Assembly: GCF_015160875.1 (NCBI RefSeq)
Contig: NZ_CP063374.1
Coordinates: 7,319,501-7,383,500, forward strand
DNA from: Streptomyces chromofuscus
GTDB lineage: Bacteria > Actinomycetota > Actinomycetes > Streptomycetales > Streptomycetaceae
Length of the DNA: 64,000 nucleotides
Direction: 5' to 3'
In this document: positions 51,363-63,117 of the stretch, piece after piece
Position numbering within the stretch: position 1 is the first letter of the stretch
Layout of the letters: every line of letters starts with the position of its first letter
Made by a program: the position numbers and the translations under genes
Notes under the pieces: model-generated
What the model saw: only the letters and a program-made list of their open reading frames with translations
Told to the model about the DNA's origin: nothing
Databases searched by the model: none

Positions 51363-51611
51363 GACGCCGCCGCCCACTACCGCGAGCCGGCCGCCCACCA
51401 CGTCCCCGGCACCGCGGACACCATCGAGCGCGTTCTCGTCGACGGCCCCGACGGCGTCGTGCTCGGCGGGATCCGCCAGAGGGCCCGCCCCACCGGACGC
51501 TCCTACCGCGCCCGGGGCGCGCCGCACCGCACCGTCGAGGACGGCCGGATCGTCCGCCACCACGTGCACGAGGACAGCCTGGCGGTGGCCCGGGCCCTCA
51601 CGGAGAGCTGA
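51363..51611 (+). pseudogene. SnoaL-like (NTF2 fold) gene fragment
   Basis: A frame open from the upstream stop but with no plausible start reads [28 protein letters not shown], then the SnoaL C-terminus TVEDGRIVRHHVHEDSLAVARAL and stops at 51611. The N-terminal half and an internal piece are missing. It ends 14 nt inside the convergent sigma gene, whose own C-terminal domain has the same fold. Confidence 0.6.
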
Positions 51612-52476
51612 GTCCGTCGAGCACCGCCGGCTCCAGCCGCCGCAGCCGCTCCGGGGCGGCGACGACCTCGTACGCGCCGATCCGGTCGCCCTCGACGGTG
51701 ACCGTGAGGGCGAGCAGCAGCCGTCCGCGCGGGGCGACGACGATGCCGACACGGCCGTCGAGGAGGGCGGTGGCCGCGTACCGGGACCGCTCGCGCAGCC
51801 GCACCGTCCCCTCGGCCACCGCCCGGGCGCCCCGCAGCTCGGGAGCGACCCCGGGCGGCAGGACGGCGGGGTCGGCCCGGCGCACCACGTCCGGGGCCAG
51901 CACGTCCAGCAGCGCGGCGATGTCGCCACCCCGCGCGGCGGCCAGGAACGCCTCGACGACCCGCCGGTGCCGGTCCACCTCGGCGGCGGGCAGCGCCGGC
52001 GTGCCCCGCACCTTCTGCCGGGCGCGGCTGGCCAGCTTCTTCGCTGCCGGCCGCGAACGGCCGACGACGCGGGCGACGTCCTCGAAGGGCACGGCGAACA
52101 GGTCGTGCAGGACGAACGCGACCCGCTCGGCCGGCCCCAGCGTGTCCAGCACGACCAGCAGCGCCCGTCCCACCGAGTCGACGAGCACCGCCTCGTCCTC
52201 GGGCACGTCGCCGTCGCCGTCGGCCTCCCGGCCGTACGGCTCCTCGCGCCGGGCCGTGCGCGCCCGCAGCATGTCGAGGCAGATCCGGGACACGACCGTG
52301 GTCAGCCAGGCCGCGAGGTTGCCGATGCCGTCGCCGTCGGCGCGGCTCAGCCGCAGCCAGGCCTCCTGGACGGCGTCGTCCGCCTCGTCGGGCGAGCCCA
52401 GCATCCGGTACGCGACCGCCCGCAAGCGCCCCCGCTCCGCCTCGAAGCGCGCCGCCAGCTCCTCCCGGCCGCCCAT
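51598..52476 (-). CDS. ECF sigma factor with C-terminal SnoaL-like domain (SigJ/ECF41 type)
   Basis: A 292-residue sigma factor. Region 2 (RLRAVAYRMLGSPDEADDAVQEAWLRLSR, about 17-45) and region 4 (LGPAERVAFVLHDLFAVPFEDVARVVGRSRPAAKKLASRARQKV, about 114-157) are joined to a C-terminal NTF2/SnoaL-like domain (VVEAFLAAARGGDIAALLDVLAPDVV and onward). In ECF41-like factors this domain controls activity in place of an anti-sigma factor. A TetR gene is just upstream on the same strand. Confidence 0.9.
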   Translation of the reverse strand: MGGREELAARFEAERGRLRAVAYRMLGSPDEADDAVQEAWLRLSRADGDGIGNLAAWLTTVVSRICLDMLRARTARREEPYGREADGDGDVPEDEAVLVDSVGRALLVVLDTLGPAERVAFVLHDLFAVPFEDVARVVGRSRPAAKKLASRARQKVRGTPALPAAEVDRHRRVVEAFLAAARGGDIAALLDVLAPDVVRRADPAVLPPGVAPELRGARAVAEGTVRLRERSRYAATALLDGRVGIVVAPRGRLLLALTVTVEGDRIGAYEVVAAPERLRRLEPAVLDGLSSP

Positions 52477-56339: not shown

Positions 56340-58715
56340 TCACTCCTCCTCGAACAGCGCCATTTCCGCCCAGATCGTCTTGCCCTCGGGCGTGTGCCGG
56401 CTGCCCCAGCGCTGGGTGAGCTGGGCGACCAGCAGCAGGCCGCGTCCGCCCTCGTCCCAGGTCTTGGCGCGCCGCAGGTGCGGGGCGGTGTGGCTGGCGT
56501 CGGACACCTCGCAGATCATGGTGGCCGCGTCGTGGATCAGCCGGAGCCGGATGGGCGGGGCGCCGTACCGGATGGCGTTGGTGACCAGCTCGCTGACCAC
56601 CAGCTCGGTGGTGAAGGATGCCTCCCCCAGCCCCCAGGTGCCGAGCTGGTCGACGACCTGCTTGCGCACGGGGGCGACCAGCGCCGGATCGGCCGGGATG
56701 TCCCAGGTGGCCACCTGGGAGGCGGGCAGTCCCCGGGTACGGGCCAGGAGCAGGGCCACGTCGTCGCGGGCGCCACCGGCCGGCAGCAGCTGATGCAGGA
56801 TCCCGTCGCAGCTCTCGTCCAGGGAGGCGGCGGGGCACGACACGGCGTCCCGCAGCAGCCGCAGTCCGACGCCCACGTCGGGGGCATGCCCCTGGATCAG
56901 CCCGTCGGTGTAGAACGTCAGGACGGTTCCCTCGGGCAGATACAGGTCGGCCGCCTCGAACGGCAGCCCGCCCAGCCCGAGCGGAGGTCCGGCGGGCAGC
57001 TGGACCTCCTCGGCCGTACCGCCCGGCCGCACCATCAGCGGCGACGGATGCCCGGCCCGGGCGAGCGTGCAGCGCTGGGACACCGGGTCGTACACGGCGT
57101 ACAGACAGGTCGCGCCCACTTCCCCGGGGCTGCCGTCCGCGCCGGCCTCCTCGGAGAGCCGTACGACCAGGTCGTCGAGGTGGGTGAGCAGCTCGTCGGG
57201 GGCGAGGTCGATGTCGGCGAGGGTGCGCACGGCGGTGCGCAGCCGCCCCATGGTGGCCGAGGCCTGGATCCCGTGGCCGACCACGTCACCGACGACCATC
57301 GCGACCCGCATCCCGGACAGCGGGATCACGTCGAACCAGTCGCCACCCACCCCGGACCGCGCCGCCGGGAGATAGCGGGAGCACGCCTGGACGGCGGCCG
57401 TGCTCGGCAGCGACCGCGGGAGCAGGCTGCGCTGCAGGGCGAGGGCGGTCTCGCGCTCGCGGGTGTAGCGGCGGGCGTTGTCGATGCAGACGGCGGCCCG
57501 TGCCGTGATCTCCTCGGCGAGCAGCCGGTCGTCCGGCGTGAACGGGTCGGGCCGCCGGAAACGGGTGAGGACGGCGACGCCCAGCGTCCTGCCCCGGGCC
57601 ACGATCGGCACCGACATCGCGGAGTGGACGCCGTACGTGCGGGCCCACTCCCTGCGGGTGTCGTCCCAGCCCAGGGAGTGGGCGAGGGAGCCCGACCGGA
57701 GGTCCGCGAGGGTCGTCCGGCCGGTCAGCAGGGACGCGCCCTGGGGCGAGTCGGCGGGGTAGACGTCCCGCCGGCCCGTCCACATCGTCGCGTCGACGCC
57801 CGGGTCGACCGACTGGTGGGCCGCACGGCGCAGCATGACGGGCTCGGTCGGCGGACCGGCCAGGAGTTCGGGCTCGCCCCCGGGGTCCCACGGGTCGAGC
57901 AGATCGACGCCGGCGAAGTCGGCGAGTCCGGGCACACAGACGTCCGCCAGCTCCTGCGCCGTGCGGTTGACGTCGAGGCTCTCGCCGATCCGGACGCTCG
58001 CCTCGTTGACCAGCTGGAGCCGCTCCTGGGCCAGGTGCTGCTCGGTGAAGTCGTGCACCGTGAGGCACACCCCGCACACCCGCCCCGCCGGGTCGGTGAT
58101 CGGGGCCATCCGGCCCAACCAGGCGTTCGTCCTGCCGGTCTCGCCGATCGGCACGTAGGTGCGGGAGTTGTGTCCCCGGCCGCTGGTCAGCACCTGGTGC
58201 AGCTGCCGCTCGATGTCCTCGGTCTGGAGCCGGCCGCTGATCTCGGTCACGCGCAGCCCTCTCAGCCGCTCCCCGGGCAGCCCGATCACCGAGGCCAGCG
58301 CGTCGTTCATCCGGTACAGCCGGAGCCGGTCGTCGTAGATCGCGGTGGCGCAGGGGGACTGGATGAGGTGGGCCCGGTCCAGCGGGTCGTCGGCCGGCCG
58401 CTCGCGGTCGGCCTCCAGCGGAGTGACGACGAGCCAGCCCTCGTCGCCGTCCGGCGCCGGCCGCCGGTGGGCGAGCAGCCAGACGGACACCGTACGGCCG
58501 TCGCGGTGGCGCAAAGTGAGCGTTCCGTCCCAGCGGGCTCCTCCGGCGGTGGGCGCCGCGCCCTCGACCAGCCGCACGGCGGGCCGGCCCACGACCTCGT
58601 CGGCCGTCCAGCCCAGCAGCCGCCGGGCCCCCTCGCCCCACTCGGTCACCCGGCCCTCGGCGTCGATGGCGGCCCGGGCCGTAGCGGCCTCGTCGAACGG
58701 GTACTCCGGGGTCAT
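56340..58715 (-). CDS. PAS-PAS-GAF-PP2C (SpoIIE) phosphatase with HATPase domain
   Basis: A 791-residue multidomain regulator from the preferred ATG. PAS-like region near 8-115, a second PAS near 120-240 (TAIYDDRLRLYRMNDALASVIGLPGERLRG), GAF near 255-410, a SpoIIE/PP2C phosphatase near 440-645 (VGGDWFDVIPLSGMRVAMVVGDVVGHGIQAS, LTFYTDGLIQ) and a C-terminal histidine-kinase-like ATPase near 665-790 (ELVVSELVTNAIRYG, GGRGLLL). It should dephosphorylate STAS antagonists and bind anti-sigma kinases, linking a signal to sigma factor release. ATG 58715 has GGAG 8 nt upstream. Confidence 0.9.
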   Translation of the reverse strand: MTPEYPFDEAATARAAIDAEGRVTEWGEGARRLLGWTADEVVGRPAVRLVEGAAPTAGGARWDGTLTLRHRDGRTVSVWLLAHRRPAPDGDEGWLVVTPLEADRERPADDPLDRAHLIQSPCATAIYDDRLRLYRMNDALASVIGLPGERLRGLRVTEISGRLQTEDIERQLHQVLTSGRGHNSRTYVPIGETGRTNAWLGRMAPITDPAGRVCGVCLTVHDFTEQHLAQERLQLVNEASVRIGESLDVNRTAQELADVCVPGLADFAGVDLLDPWDPGGEPELLAGPPTEPVMLRRAAHQSVDPGVDATMWTGRRDVYPADSPQGASLLTGRTTLADLRSGSLAHSLGWDDTRREWARTYGVHSAMSVPIVARGRTLGVAVLTRFRRPDPFTPDDRLLAEEITARAAVCIDNARRYTRERETALALQRSLLPRSLPSTAAVQACSRYLPAARSGVGGDWFDVIPLSGMRVAMVVGDVVGHGIQASATMGRLRTAVRTLADIDLAPDELLTHLDDLVVRLSEEAGADGSPGEVGATCLYAVYDPVSQRCTLARAGHPSPLMVRPGGTAEEVQLPAGPPLGLGGLPFEAADLYLPEGTVLTFYTDGLIQGHAPDVGVGLRLLRDAVSCPAASLDESCDGILHQLLPAGGARDDVALLLARTRGLPASQVATWDIPADPALVAPVRKQVVDQLGTWGLGEASFTTELVVSELVTNAIRYGAPPIRLRLIHDAATMICEVSDASHTAPHLRRAKTWDEGGRGLLLVAQLTQRWGSRHTPEGKTIWAEMALFEEE

Positions 58716-59008
58716 CGTCGTCACTCCATCGCGCATACGCACAGTGAACAGCCGAGTCGCTTCGGTTCCAGCCTAGTGCTTCGCGGTCCGGTGCGAACCC
58801 GGCCGCCGGGCGCCGCTCGGCACATCCGTCAAGCGGTGGAATCGGCCGATGTGGCACGCGGACCGCAGGGACCTCTCCACACCGTGGACGAGCGCGTATG
58901 GCACAGCGTCAGAAATCCTCGAATCGCGACCAGTTGTGCGCACGCGTGACCGTCCCGACCCTCTCTTCGCCGAACCCCGCGCCGCACGCCCCGCGCCCCC
59001 ACGGCCGG

Positions 59009-59629: not shown

Positions 59630-59875
59630 ATGCCAGCCCTCAACGTGGAGTTCAGTGATCGTGAGCTCGAGGACCTGCGGCAGATCGCCAAGGAGCGCGG
59701 TACGTCGATGAAGGCCCTCGTGCGGGAGGCGGCCGCGGCCGACATCGCCCGGCACCGGGCGCTGCAGGAGGGCGCCGAGGCCTTCCGTCGGTTCTTCACC
59801 GCCCACGCGGACGAGTTCGCGGCCGCCTTCCCCGACGACGAGCAGCCCGCCGGCGGCGAAGGACGGGCCGCCTGA
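59630..59875 (+). CDS. Antitoxin (ribbon-helix-helix-like)
   Basis: An 81-residue protein starting MPALNVEFSDRELEDLRQIAKERGTSMKALVREAA, which looks like a beta-strand plus two helices as in ribbon-helix-helix antitoxins; the C-terminus is acidic and low-complexity, suited to toxin binding. No ribosome site; TACCGT 6 nt upstream suggests a leaderless mRNA. The toxin gene starts 3 nt after the stop. Confidence 0.72.
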   Translation: MPALNVEFSDRELEDLRQIAKERGTSMKALVREAAAADIARHRALQEGAEAFRRFFTAHADEFAAAFPDDEQPAGGEGRAA

Positions 59876-59878
59876 GCG

Positions 59879-60256
59879 ATGGCATCCGCCCTGCACATCG
59901 ACGTGCCCTGGCTGCTGCAGCGGCACGAGGAGGTCCTGCCGGACCAGCCGACGATCAACGACTTCTCCGCGCTGGTGGCCGCCGTCGCCCGGCACCGTGT
60001 CGACCCGCCCCGCCTCGGCGTCGACTCCGACCCCGCCTGGCGGGCCGCCGCCCTGCTGCACACGCTCGCCCTGCTGAGGCCCCTGCCCTCGGCCAACGCC
60101 CGTTTCGCCTGCGCGACCGCCGTGGCCTACATGTTCGTCAGCGGCGTCGGCATCGACCCGCCCTACGGCGCCCTCGTGGACCTCGCCCGGGACCTGATCG
60201 ACGGCAAGACGGACGTGTACGGGGCGGCGGACCGGCTGCGGTCCTGGCAGATCTGA
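59879..60256 (+). CDS. Fic/Doc-like toxin with altered active site
   Basis: A 125-residue helical protein. The segment LLRPLPSANARFACATAVAYMFVSG aligns with the Fic motif HPFxxGNxR: the proline, asparagine and arginine are kept, but the catalytic histidine position is not His (Leu or Arg) and the DG pair is SA. Doc toxins phosphorylate EF-Tu; loss of the histidine suggests an inactive or different activity. ATG 59879 is 3 nt after the antitoxin stop. I am sure of the pairing, less so of the biochemistry. Confidence 0.65.
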   Translation: MASALHIDVPWLLQRHEEVLPDQPTINDFSALVAAVARHRVDPPRLGVDSDPAWRAAALLHTLALLRPLPSANARFACATAVAYMFVSGVGIDPPYGALVDLARDLIDGKTDVYGAADRLRSWQI

Positions 60257-60595
60257 CCGGCGCCCGTTCTCGAGGAGGCGCCGTGGCCGCAGCGGCGTGC
60301 CCGGCCTTCACGTGCGGGAGTTTCCCGCGGGGCGCTCGAAAAGGCGAATGACGAGCGACTGGCCGTTGTCGTGGCCCAAATCAACTTTCTGTCAGTGGTG
60401 CTGAGCTTCCTCAAGCGCCTTGTTGGCCCAGAGTGAGCTGTGCAAAGGTGAACCCCCGGCGGGGGGCGCAATGGCCGGGCTCACGCGCACAATTAACGCC
60501 CCTCGCGCCCCCGTCAAAAAGGTACGCACCATCCGGGCCTCCTTTTTCGGCGGACAGAAATCTCGTGTCACCTTGCGTGGGAAGGAATCCGCTCA
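60257..60595. other. Spacer upstream of the membrane sigma-like gene
   Basis: About 339 bp of lower-GC sequence without a coding frame of good codon use. A weak stem AAAAAGG/CCTTTTT (60516-60522 with 60541-60547) is present. GAAGGAA (60581-60587) is the ribosome site of the next gene. No promoter of known type could be assigned. Confidence 0.4.
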
Positions 60596-62221
60596 GTGCC
60601 CACCCCCCACCCCCCTCGACCTCCTTACCCGCCGCCCGGCGGTGATCCGGGTGAGTCCGACGCCGCCCTCGCCGCCCGGCTGACAGGAGCCCCAGACGTC
60701 GAAGTCGCCCACGCGACCGCCCTGCTGACCGCCCGGCACTGGCAGCCGGTACACGACTACGCGGTCATCTGCCTCGCCTCCTCGGGAAGCGTCGCCTCCA
60801 TGGTCACCGCGGCGGCCTTCCACCAGGTCTTCGACCGGCTCACCCTGGGCGAACAGGGCGACGCGCTGCGGCCGCGCCTGCTGGTGACCGTGCGGGACGT
60901 CGTCCGGCTGTGGTCGGCCGAGGAGCGCATAGCCGCGGCGCTTCCGGCGTTGCTGAAACCGGCCGGCGGGCGCGGTATGCGCGCCGCCAAGTCGATGACC
61001 CCGGAAAACCGCAAGCTGGCCGAGCGCGCATTCGCGGGCCTTCCCGCAGCGGCACGGTGTCTGCTGTGGCACACCGAGGTCGAGGCGGAGCCGATCACGT
61101 TCCCCGCCGGTCTGCTCGGCATGGACGCCGGGATGGCGACGGCCGTCCTGGAACAGGCCCGGGACAAATTCCGGGAGGGCTGCCTGCGGGCCCATCAGGA
61201 ACTCGCGCCGTCCAAGGACTGCCGCTTCTACAACCGCCTCCTCGACGTCCCGATCCGCCGTGGCGGCGCCCTGCTGCCGGATGTCCAGCAGCATCTCGTC
61301 CAGTGCCGCCACTGCCGTGACGCCGCCGAACAGCTCAGCCACTTCGAGGGCGGGCTCGACGTGTTGCTGGCCGAGGCCGTGCTCGGCTGGGGCAGCCGCC
61401 GCTACCTCGACTCCCGGCCCGGCCGCACCCAGCACCGCGCGCGCACCCGCGCCGCCGCCCGGCACTCCGCCCGCGCGCGCGGCGCCGCACGCCACGGCGT
61501 CCTCGGCCGCATCCCCCGCATGGGCGGGCGCTCCTCCCGGGCACTGCGCACGGGTGCGGGCATCGCCGGCGCCGCCCTGCTGGGCACCGTCCTCGCCACC
61601 AGCCTGTCGTCCTACGACGGCGACACCGACCCCACGGCCTCCGCGGGCGCCACCGAGGGCACCAGGGCGGCGCCCGGCACCGGAACCCAGGCCCGGCCCA
61701 CGGCCTCCGCCACGCCCCCCGGCACCGCCCAACTCCCCACCGCGCCGCGGGAGACCCGGCTGCGCAACGCCGCGAGCGAGCTGTGCCTCGACGTCCGCGA
61801 CGGGGCCGAGGCGAGGGCCGGGGCCGTACTGGCGGTGTGTTCCTCCGAAGCCACCCAGCAGTGGTCGTACGAGAGCGACGGGCTGCTGCGCAGCGTGGCC
61901 GACCCCGGCCTGTGCCTGGACTCGCACGCGGACGCCGGTGTCGTCATCCTCGGCGCGTGCGCCGACGCCCAGGACGAGCGCGCCGACGACGTGCGCTACG
62001 ACCTCACCGTCCGGGGCGAACTGCTGCCCCGCTGGGACGAGCAGCTCGCGCTCGCCTCCACCGGCGGGGAACCGGGCGCCGACATGGTGGTGAAGGTCCG
62101 CGACGGCTCGGACGCCCAGCGGTGGCTGGTCGACCCGCAGCCGGCCGAGGCGGGTTCGCTGTCGGTCGCGGAGACGGTCGACCCGTCGGCGCGGCAGGCG
62201 GGGCTGGGGGAGGGGCCCTAG
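60596..62221 (+). CDS. Membrane-tethered sigma-like protein with anti-sigma motif and ricin-type lectin
   Basis: A 541-residue fusion. Residues about 39-115 resemble ECF sigma region 2 and about 138-202 region 4 (LPAAARCLLWHTEVEAEPIT, then a helix ending QARDKFREGCLRAH). A zinc anti-sigma-type motif H233-x3-C237-x2-C240 follows. After an Arg-rich linker comes one membrane span (318-338, GIAGAALLGTVLATSL), a Thr/Pro-rich spacer and a beta-trefoil lectin (385-512) with the QQW and QRW motifs. The inside part would face DNA and the lectin the exterior. GTG 60596 has GAAGGAA upstream. Confidence 0.8.
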   Translation: MPTPHPPRPPYPPPGGDPGESDAALAARLTGAPDVEVAHATALLTARHWQPVHDYAVICLASSGSVASMVTAAAFHQVFDRLTLGEQGDALRPRLLVTVRDVVRLWSAEERIAAALPALLKPAGGRGMRAAKSMTPENRKLAERAFAGLPAAARCLLWHTEVEAEPITFPAGLLGMDAGMATAVLEQARDKFREGCLRAHQELAPSKDCRFYNRLLDVPIRRGGALLPDVQQHLVQCRHCRDAAEQLSHFEGGLDVLLAEAVLGWGSRRYLDSRPGRTQHRARTRAAARHSARARGAARHGVLGRIPRMGGRSSRALRTGAGIAGAALLGTVLATSLSSYDGDTDPTASAGATEGTRAAPGTGTQARPTASATPPGTAQLPTAPRETRLRNAASELCLDVRDGAEARAGAVLAVCSSEATQQWSYESDGLLRSVADPGLCLDSHADAGVVILGACADAQDERADDVRYDLTVRGELLPRWDEQLALASTGGEPGADMVVKVRDGSDAQRWLVDPQPAEAGSLSVAETVDPSARQAGLGEGP

Positions 62222-62307
62222 GGGACTGCCGTCACACCGCGGCGGCGGGGCACGAGCGGCACCGCACCACGCCGCTGCGGTGAAGGACCACGGCGGCCTG
62301 TGCGGGC

Positions 62308-63018
62308 TCAGTAGACGCTCAGGCCGTACGCCGACAGCCACTCGACCACCGGTTGGTAGTAGGTGACGCCTCCCGAGCCGCAGTTCCCGCTGCTGCCGAC
62401 GATGATGCCCAGAGCCGTGCCGCCCGAGAAGGCCGGACCACCGGTGTCTCCGGGCTCGGAGCAGACGGTGGACCGGAACAGTCCGTACACGGTGCCCCCG
62501 CCGTAGTTGACGGTGACGTTCACGGCCTGGATGGTCCCGCAGCGGTATCCGGTGGTCCGGCCCACATGGCAGAGCGACTGCCCGACGACGGGACTCGCCG
62601 CGCCGGTGATGTCGCGGGAACCGGCGCCGGCGCCCAGCGAGACCTCGCCGGGGTAGGCGACCGCCGTGTTGGTGTACCGGACGCTCGCGTAGTCGTCGCC
62701 CGGGAAGCTCACTCCCGCGGTGACGCCGACGGCGACCGTCAGGGCGGCGTCGGCGTACCAGGCCTGGGCGCCCTGCGCGCACCGGCCCGGCACGAGCGCG
62801 TACAGCGCGGAGCCGGAACGGGCGTTGAAGCCCACGGTGCAGCGGGCGCCGGCGCTGTAGAGGGTGTCGCCCCCGCGCACCGCGACGGCCGCCTGTGGCC
62901 CCGCCCGCTCCCCGGCATGCGCGCCCGGCCCGGCGGCGGACCAGCCGAGGAGGAGTACCAGTGCGACGACCGCCTGGACGACGGTTCGGAGGAGTCTTTC
63001 GCCCTGCATGGGACTCAC
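62308..63018 (-). CDS. Secreted S1 protease-like protein with lost catalytic residues
   Basis: A 236-residue chymotrypsin-fold protein. Signal peptide about 1-35 (VVQAVVALVLLLGWSAAGPGAHA). At the catalytic sites the His position in the usual TAGHC motif is VPGRC, the Asp is kept (FPGDDYASVRY), and the usual GDSGGP is GDTGGP. With Arg and Thr in place of His and Ser it should not be a serine protease. The fold and cysteine pattern of the streptogrisin group are otherwise intact. GTG 63018 has AGGAGGT 5 nt upstream. Confidence 0.85.
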   Translation of the reverse strand: MSPMQGERLLRTVVQAVVALVLLLGWSAAGPGAHAGERAGPQAAVAVRGGDTLYSAGARCTVGFNARSGSALYALVPGRCAQGAQAWYADAALTVAVGVTAGVSFPGDDYASVRYTNTAVAYPGEVSLGAGAGSRDITGAASPVVGQSLCHVGRTTGYRCGTIQAVNVTVNYGGGTVYGLFRSTVCSEPGDTGGPAFSGGTALGIIVGSSGNCGSGGVTYYQPVVEWLSAYGLSVY

Positions 63019-63117
63019 GGTGACCTCCTGTGGCATGCACCGGCCATTGTGAGTCCCTCCGGCACGGATGGTCAGGCCGAAACCCGCCATCCACACGGCG
63101 CGCGGGCCACCGTCGGC

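What the first reader, a model, noticed from the sequence alone, without database searches (positions are those of the whole stretch)
60596..62221. One-piece transmembrane sigma-like factor with a lectin sensor
Seen: an ECF-sigma-like helical head, an H-x3-C-x2-C anti-sigma-type zinc motif, an Arg-rich linker, one membrane span and an extracellular ricin-type trefoil in one 541-residue ORF. Known: normally sigma and anti-sigma are separate proteins and the anti-sigma is the membrane part. Inferred: a glycan bound outside could directly free or silence a sigma head tied to the membrane. The region-4-like part may be degenerate, so it could be an evolved anti-sigma instead.
Basis: partly seen in the sequence, partly recalled or inferred. 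Interest (0 to 1): 0.78.

Follow-up and report, generated by a model that had tools for sequence, protein, structure and literature searches.

The report
Lectin receptor with decayed sigma head
A Streptomyces membrane protein carries a sugar-binding domain outside the cell and, inside, a former transcription-initiation (sigma) factor that has lost its usual contact residues but is still strongly conserved together with an anti-sigma-type zinc finger; it is probably a sugar sensor of a partly known type whose signalling step remains to be found.

Summary
In detail: ORF 60596-62221 encodes 541 residues with a sigma2/sigma4-like head, a C209-H233-C237-C240 zinc site, an Arg-rich linker, one weak membrane span and a ricin-type trefoil. 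One-piece membrane sigma factors with zinc finger and sugar-binding domain are already known (ECF52; SCO4117), and this genome has one (L003). New here: the window protein belongs to paralogous Streptomyces subclades whose head descends from an ECF52-like sigma but has lost its hallmarks. Pfam sigma region 2 is found in 0 of 135 subclade members, against 30 of 30 ECF52 proteins; the acidic residues of region 2.2 are mostly replaced and the region 4.2 helix turns from basic to acidic. The zinc ligands are kept in 135 of 135 and the head is the best-conserved part (dN/dS 0.13; zinc part 0.06). So it looks repurposed, not decaying. Outer modules differ between subclades (ricin, CBM2). The partner is unknown; a SigJ-like sigma gene near about half of the orthologues, but not near this copy, is a lead.

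The parts
60596..62221 (+). whole gene, 541 aa, GTG start
   Evidence: 80 orthologues kept of 347 relatives; conserved ribosome-site and start region in 73 upstream sequences
60653..60940 (+). residues ~20-115, sigma2-like fold; region 2.2 acids replaced (S68, M69, A73)
60992..61201 (+). residues ~133-202, sigma4-like fold; recognition helix net acidic
61202..61417 (+). residues ~203-274, ZAS-type zinc domain (C209, H233, C237, C240) followed by conserved AVLGWG..RY; most constrained part
61418..61540 (+). Arg-rich, poorly conserved cytoplasmic linker
61550..61606 (+). single membrane span, residues ~319-337 (hydropathy weak in this copy, stronger in orthologues)
61607..61750 (+). Ala/Pro/Ser/Thr/Gly-rich linker, presumably extracellular
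61751..62128 (+). ricin-type beta-trefoil lectin, CLD at 397 and 440, QxW at 421 and 508
60418..60451 (+). conserved element CCTTGTTG-N13-TGTGCAAAGGTGA in the upstream intergenic region, the only match (up to 3 mismatches) in this genome

Best explanation
The gene encodes a single-span glycan receptor derived from an ECF52-type one-piece sigma factor. Shown by computation: the cytoplasmic head is related to, and is predicted to fold like, a two-domain ECF sigma factor fused to a ZAS-type zinc domain; the subclades around it have lost the acidic region 2.2 signature (polymerase-clamp side) and the basic region 4.2 recognition helix, while the zinc ligands and the helix after them are the most constrained sequence. 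Inferred: the head no longer forms holoenzyme. It survives as a sigma-shaped protein-binding module that docks its own zinc finger; binding of a glycan by the outer trefoil (or shedding of the ectodomain) shifts or cuts the receptor and so exposes or removes the finger or the pseudo-sigma surface, which then acts on a partner in trans, most likely another sigma or anti-sigma factor. The trans partner and the direction of the switch are not known.
For: Kinship: the head matches the canonical ECF52 paralogue L003 at 33% identity, E 3e-18; sigma2 and sigma4 folds predicted. Loss: Pfam Sigma70_r2 in 30 of 30 ECF52 but in 0 of 135 subclade members: 0/81, 0/13, 0/11, 0/17, 0/13 (E<=1 for the first, 0.01 for the others); region 4 weakly in 2 of 135. 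Of 19 further mixed relatives 16 match region 2. Acidic residue at window positions 68/69/73: 45/46, 46/46, 46/46 in sigma-type rows against 15/135, 1/135, 19/135; net charge of 177-196 is +1.97 in ECF52, -1.8 in orthologues. Regions 2.1/2.2 bind the beta-prime clamp helices (PMC7406223, passages). NCBIfam sigma70-ECF (cut-off 42.9): L003 57.3, L156 70.3, L181 49.0; L130 of subclade C 16.1; no match listed for L002, L004, L116 or the window protein. Retention: zinc ligands 135/135. Function kept: median dN/dS over 30 orthologue pairs 0.134 for the head, 0.061 for zinc part plus WG motif, 0.261 for the lectin. One loss is the simplest account: sigma-type and pseudo-type rows need 2 changes on a tree built without region 2.2, one of them probably due to one row (L159, inside the CBM2 subclade) that my simple rule calls sigma-type. 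Docking in cis: the zinc domain scores pLDDT 68, pTM 0.49 alone but about 88-94 for most of it within the head. Possible partner: a SigJ-like sigma gene of one family (single linkage at >=70% identity) lies 1.1-6.7 kb upstream on the other strand in 37 of 80 loci; at >=75% identity it is in 9 of the 18 genomes that have the receptor and in 0 of the 43 others.
Against: No partner is shown. The SigJ-like gene is missing near 30 of the 65 loci with at least 7 kb upstream and from this genome at that identity (best 52%); the SigJ-like gene in the window (51598-52476) is a different one (31-39% identical), and shared position may be mere synteny. The canonical ECF52 is not required: G027 (3 contigs, 99% complete) and G014 (320 contigs) carry the receptor without it. 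Orthologue-only profiles do not find sigma factors, and the zinc profile without ECF52 rows finds collagen first (E 0.0012, 0.0061) and ChrR and RslA only at E 0.33-0.73; the better matches were carried by other paralogues. Loss of hallmarks does not prove loss of polymerase binding; arginines 189 and 193 and the aromatic at 75 are mostly kept, the CBM2 subclade keeps the acid at 73 in 17 of 17, and 14 of 81 have an acid at 68. The isolated zinc-domain model matched no anti-sigma fold (low confidence). Both sigma domains together do not superpose on a known pair (rmsd 10-14 A in the better sigma/anti-sigma rows). Coordinates could not be inspected, and the two models were built from different alignments, so docking in cis rests on confidence values that alignment quality may also explain.
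Confidence: 0.5

Rival explanations
1. It is still a working, membrane-tied ECF sigma factor of the ECF52 kind: glycan binding triggers regulated proteolysis, the head is released and directs transcription with unusual contacts, as proposed for SCO4117.
For: Same order of domains as ECF52; sigma2 and sigma4 folds predicted; head under strong purifying selection; subclade C still scores weakly with sigma region 4 (2 of 11; L130).
Against: Region 2.2 acids mostly lost and region 4.2 charge reversed; Pfam region 2 in 0 of 135.
Confidence: 0.2
2. The head is only a folded scaffold, dimerisation or anchoring module; the protein is a cell-surface glycan binder (adhesion to plant or fungal polymers, or to the cell's own wall) without a signalling role.
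For: Outer domains are of polymer- or sugar-binding families (ricin trefoil, CBM2); a gene of the GH9 cellulase cluster lies near in 50 of 60 loci.
Against: The cytoplasmic head is more constrained than the lectin (dN/dS 0.134 against 0.261) and the zinc part most of all, which a mere anchor does not need.
Confidence: 0.2
3. A sigma mimic in trans, like PhyR: the pseudo-sigma surface binds the anti-sigma domain of another protein and so frees a real sigma factor.
For: PhyR, a sigma-like anti-anti-sigma, is among the structural matches (4qic, 9by5, 3t0y); the clamp-contacting face, which also contacts anti-sigma helix 4, is what changed.
Against: The protein carries its own zinc domain in the same head, which would compete; PhyR matches rank below the best sigma factors. 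Whether another anti-sigma gene is linked was not examined.
Confidence: 0.1

Closest known systems
ECF52 sigma factors (SCO4117 of S. coelicolor; L003 in this genome)
   Same: One chain with ECF head, zinc finger, membrane span, Pro-rich linker and outer sugar-binding domain (PMC5826349, passages).
   Different: ECF52 keeps recognisable sigma region 2 (30 of 30) and mostly region 4 (23 of 30) and has an NPCBM domain (26 of 30); the window's relatives have lost the sigma signatures and carry ricin or CBM2 domains.
IutY (P. putida) and ECF48/ECF53
   Same: Sigma and anti-sigma in one membrane protein (PMC5411451 and PMC8999054, passages).
   Different: IutY is a working sigma factor activated by proteolysis via an outer-membrane receptor, not a lectin; ECF48/53 are described as sigma factors.
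RsgI anti-sigma-I factors of Clostridium thermocellum
   Same: Membrane regulator with an outer carbohydrate-binding module and a cytoplasmic anti-sigma part (PMC4711584, passages).
   Different: RsgI has a separate sigma gene next to it and a different cytoplasmic domain; here a pseudo-sigma is fused and no sigma gene is immediately adjacent in the window.
PhyR (sigma-like anti-anti-sigma)
   Same: A sigma-shaped domain used for protein mimicry instead of transcription (structures; mechanism recalled).
   Different: PhyR is a soluble response regulator acting on NepR; the window protein is a membrane lectin with its own zinc domain.

Membership tests
ECF52 sigma factors | Order sigma head - zinc finger - membrane span - low-complexity linker - carbohydrate-binding domain | tested here: met
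ECF52 sigma factors | Recognisable sigma-70 regions 2 and 4 | tested here: not met
   0 of 81 (window plus orthologues) match Sigma70_r2 or r4 at E<=1; 30 of 30 ECF52 match region 2 and 23 of 30 region 4 at E<=0.01
ECF52 sigma factors | Sigma2 and sigma4 folds | tested here: met
   predicted model, (alignment included three paralogues)
ECF52 sigma factors | Binds core polymerase and directs transcription | not testable with these tools
   only sequence hallmarks examined
ZAS (zinc) class I anti-sigma domain | C/H-x(n)-H-x3-C-x2-C zinc ligands | tested here: met
   invariant in 135 of 135 subclade rows and 64 of 64 rows of A10
ZAS (zinc) class I anti-sigma domain | Profile similarity to solved ZAS anti-sigmas | tested here: inconclusive
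   with ECF52 rows: RslA E 0.0018, ChrR 0.036, RsiW 0.056; without them: collagen first, ChrR 0.33, RslA 0.73; Pfam zf-HC2 in 1 of 81 at E 0.99
ZAS (zinc) class I anti-sigma domain | Four-helix anti-sigma fold | tested here: inconclusive
   isolated model of low confidence, no match
ZAS (zinc) class I anti-sigma domain | Binds and inhibits a sigma factor | not testable with these tools
   no binding test available
Ricin-type beta-trefoil lectins | Pfam Ricin_B_lectin above the gathering score | tested here: met
   64 bits against a cut-off of 29; 81 of 81 match at E<=1
Ricin-type beta-trefoil lectins | Sugar binding | not testable with these tools
   CLD and QxW of the first repeat kept; ligand unknown

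The most novel reading that the evidence does not exclude
Streptomyces evolved a set of one-piece glycan receptors in which a dead sigma factor is kept as a built-in decoy for its own anti-sigma finger: sugar binding outside undocks the finger, which then captures (or releases) a true sigma factor elsewhere, so that a transcription factor has become the lock of a receptor. Exchange of outer modules (ricin, CBM2) would give one signalling head several sugar inputs.
Probability: 0.3. Interest if true: 0.8.

Novelty: new variant of a known kind. Interest (0 to 1): 0.52.

Why it matters
If right, it shows a sigma factor turned into a non-transcribing signalling part inside a membrane receptor, and gives a set of paralogues with ricin or CBM2 ectodomains through which Streptomyces may sense plant, fungal or own-wall glycans. 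It also warns that architecture alone ('sigma + anti-sigma + lectin') does not make a protein a sigma factor. My paper searches (listings and abstracts) showed no description of these proteins; the main ECF reclassification paper was not held, so absence from print is not shown.

Tried and rejected
Artefact of high GC: a longer reverse-strand ORF (60593-63094) overlaps, but the forward frame is the conserved one. Dependence on the canonical ECF52: not obligatory. Controls that went against me: orthologue-only head profile (best matches Mediator 23 at E 0.066, then mostly histones) and zinc profile without ECF52 and L004-type rows. Foldseek alone gave no match at E<=0.001 for the head (best E 0.016) and nothing useful for the isolated zinc domain. 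Consensus promoter and terminator scan upstream: 0 found. Rows dropped: L086 (copy of L003), L101, L106, L129 (211 aa, in-frame stop) and L172 were left out of the tree; L141, L166 and L174 fall inside the large pseudo-type branch of that tree but were put in neither group, and are among the 19 mixed rows, where L141 matches region 4 weakly (E 0.0025) and not region 2; which of the other 18 lack region 2 was not resolved. The tree is the quick one; the careful search was not confirmed as finished, and long branches (L166, L174, L171, L176) may be misplaced. The 80 orthologues are the best of 347, so full length is favoured by the selection; with a head-only query the 18 of 61 genomes with E<1e-100 all show open frames of 527-732 aa at the best hit. 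Solved matches of the trefoil are ricin B chain and other plant lectins; this is fold kinship only.

Full report
What is there. The ORF at 60596-62221 (+) encodes 541 residues. It lies in a 7.48 Mb single-contig genome whose named close relatives are nearly all Streptomyces. The order is: sigma2-like part (~20-115), sigma4-like part (~133-202), zinc domain (~203-274), Arg-rich linker, one membrane span (~319-337, weak in this copy), a linker rich in Ala, Pro, Ser, Thr and Gly, and a ricin-type trefoil (386-511). Pfam sees only the trefoil; NCBIfam adds a sub-threshold anti-sigma hint at 230-247 (E 0.19).

Where the head comes from. A search of the own genome finds three further genes (four matches, two in one frame): L003 (654 or 696 aa by the start chosen; NPCBM), L002 (CBM2) and L004/L005 (ricin). 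L003 has sigma region 2 (E 1e-11) and weak region 4 and zf-HC2 matches, passes the NCBIfam ECF sigma cut-off, and lies downstream of a TetR-type gene (my reading), as SCO4117 lies downstream of atrA: I take it as the canonical ECF52 protein. The window head matches it at 33% identity, E 3e-18. AlphaFold2 of the head is confident and its two halves superpose on sigma2 and sigma4 of ECF factors; these Z values are middling for helical domains, but the great majority of rows are sigma factors or sigma-like proteins. Two cautions. The alignment for the model held three paralogues, L003 among them. And a profile of the 42 orthologous heads alone finds no sigma factor in the PDB at E<=10, while the mixed profile does (SigE, E 0.0015). 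So the kinship runs through the paralogues; the window head by itself is beyond profile recognition.

The head has lost what makes a sigma factor. I collected 80 orthologues, 72 further stretches from unnamed Streptomyces genomes and 29 ECF52 loci beside L003. Pfam region 2 is found in 30 of 30 ECF52 and in 16 of 19 mixed relatives, but in 0 of 135 proteins of the subclades around the window protein: 81 orthologues including the window, 13 near paralogues, 11 of subclade C, 17 with CBM2 and 13 of the L004 subclade. The acidic residues of region 2.2, aligned to window positions 68, 69 and 73, are present in 45, 46 and 46 of 46 sigma-type rows and in 15, 1 and 19 of 135 subclade rows (17 of the 19 are the CBM2 proteins); the helix at 177-196 changes from net +1.97 (ECF52) to -1.8 (orthologues). 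Subclade C is intermediate: it keeps the region 4 arginines and scores weakly as sigma. On the quick tree the two states need 2 changes, one probably due to a row that my simple rule misclassifies.

But it is not decaying. All four zinc ligands are kept in 135 of 135 subclade rows. Over 30 orthologue pairs the median dN/dS is 0.134 for the head, 0.215 and 0.114 for its sigma2 and sigma4 parts, 0.061 for the zinc part with the WG motif, 0.261 for the lectin and 0.43 for the Arg linker (my own Nei-Gojobori-type count). The zinc spacing is that of ZAS anti-sigmas (recalled), but profile support is mixed: with ECF52 rows the best solved matches are RslA, ChrR and RsiW (E 0.0018-0.056), without them collagen comes first and ChrR and RslA follow at E 0.33-0.73. 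Alone the zinc domain is predicted poorly, within the head well, which suggests that it packs on the pseudo-sigma; the two models used different alignments, so this is weak inference.

Distribution and neighbours. A hit to the head at E<1e-100 is found in 18 of 61 genomes of the genus and in 57 of 132 same-genus genomes, against 0 of 15 of other genera in the order (counted by eye; some best hits at 63-68% may be the second paralogue). An antitoxin-like and a Doc-like gene stand upstream in 70 and 71 of 80 loci at 87-98% identity; of the nine loci without the Doc-like gene eight begin at a contig end just before the receptor. Among 60 longer loci a gene of the GH9 cellulase cluster is near in 50, a subtilisin-inhibitor gene in 53 and an FMN-dependent dehydrogenase in 54 (families from one representative each); none of these clusters holds a gene called in the last 14 kb of the window, so they say little about this copy. 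A SigJ-like sigma gene of one family lies 1.1-6.7 kb upstream on the other strand in 37 of 80 loci, 35 of the 65 with at least 7 kb upstream. At >=75% identity it occurs in 9 genomes of 61, all of them among the 18 with the receptor. It is absent at that level from this genome, whose window holds a different SigJ-like gene at 51598-52476. It is a lead for a partner, or simply synteny. The protease and NAD-binding genes downstream in the window recur in 0 of 80.

Comparison with what is known. ECF52 sigma factors are described as one-piece proteins with zinc finger, membrane span, Pro-rich extension and carbohydrate-binding domain, thought to be activated by proteolysis or conformational change (PMC5826349, passages; PMC8999054, passages). 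A review notes carbohydrate-binding and glycosyl hydrolase domains on ECF52/53 proteins without experimental validation (PMC10766802, passage). RsgI anti-sigmas bind polysaccharides with outer modules (PMC4711584, passages). The window protein shares the architecture but fails the defining sigma test; I therefore do not file it as an ECF52 sigma factor, only as its derivative.

Mechanism. Shown: kinship, predicted fold, loss of sigma hallmarks, retention and constraint of the zinc domain, different outer modules between subclades. Inferred: no holoenzyme formation; intramolecular docking of the zinc domain; gating by glycan; action on a partner in trans. The regions that anti-sigma helix 4 contacts are the clamp-binding regions 2.1/2.2 (PMC7406223, passages), so a pseudo-sigma freed from polymerase binding could keep the anti-sigma contact. 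The canonical ECF52 is not required, since two genomes have the receptor without it. The checks weakened the profile evidence and added the SigJ-like lead; I left the odds as they were.

Noticed in passing
59630-59875 and 59879-60256: Antitoxin-like (ribbon-helix-helix) and Doc-like (by eye) gene pair directly upstream, 87-98% identical across Streptomyces, far more conserved than the receptor; the 125-aa protein has no Pfam or NCBIfam match at E<=0.01.
   Followed up: partly
51598-52476 (-) and 37 of the loci L011-L076: SigJ-like (ECF41-type, by eye) sigma gene in the window, and a different SigJ-like family near 37 of 80 orthologues, which at >=75% identity occurs only in receptor-bearing genomes, 9 of 61.
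   Followed up: partly
60418-60451: Conserved intergenic element CCTTGTTG-N12/13-TGTGCAA-GGTGA, the only match in this genome with up to 3 mismatches; no sigma-70 promoter match there.
   Followed up: partly
L130-L140 and genomes: A second ricin-type paralogue (subclade C) with a longer C-terminal tail lies about 11-22 kb from the orthologue on the same contig in 10 of 18 genomes (counted by eye) but was not found in this one.
   Followed up: no
L003:1462-3423: Canonical ECF52-type sigma factor (SCO4117-like) of this genome, with NPCBM domain.
   Followed up: yes
residues 57-75 (60764-60820): The altered region 2.2 helix is the most hydrophobic 19-mer of the protein (1.73), above the presumed membrane span (1.49).
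   Followed up: no
one row of alignment A4, perhaps L104: One of the 30 ECF52-type rows also matches AAA/NB-ARC/STAND NTPase models (row not named by the tool); L104 has by far the longest frame, 1321 aa.
   Followed up: no
56340-58742 (-): PAS-GAF-SpoIIE phosphatase with a C-terminal HATPase domain; a similar gene (E<=1e-8) lies near the orthologue in 24 of 80 loci.
   Followed up: no
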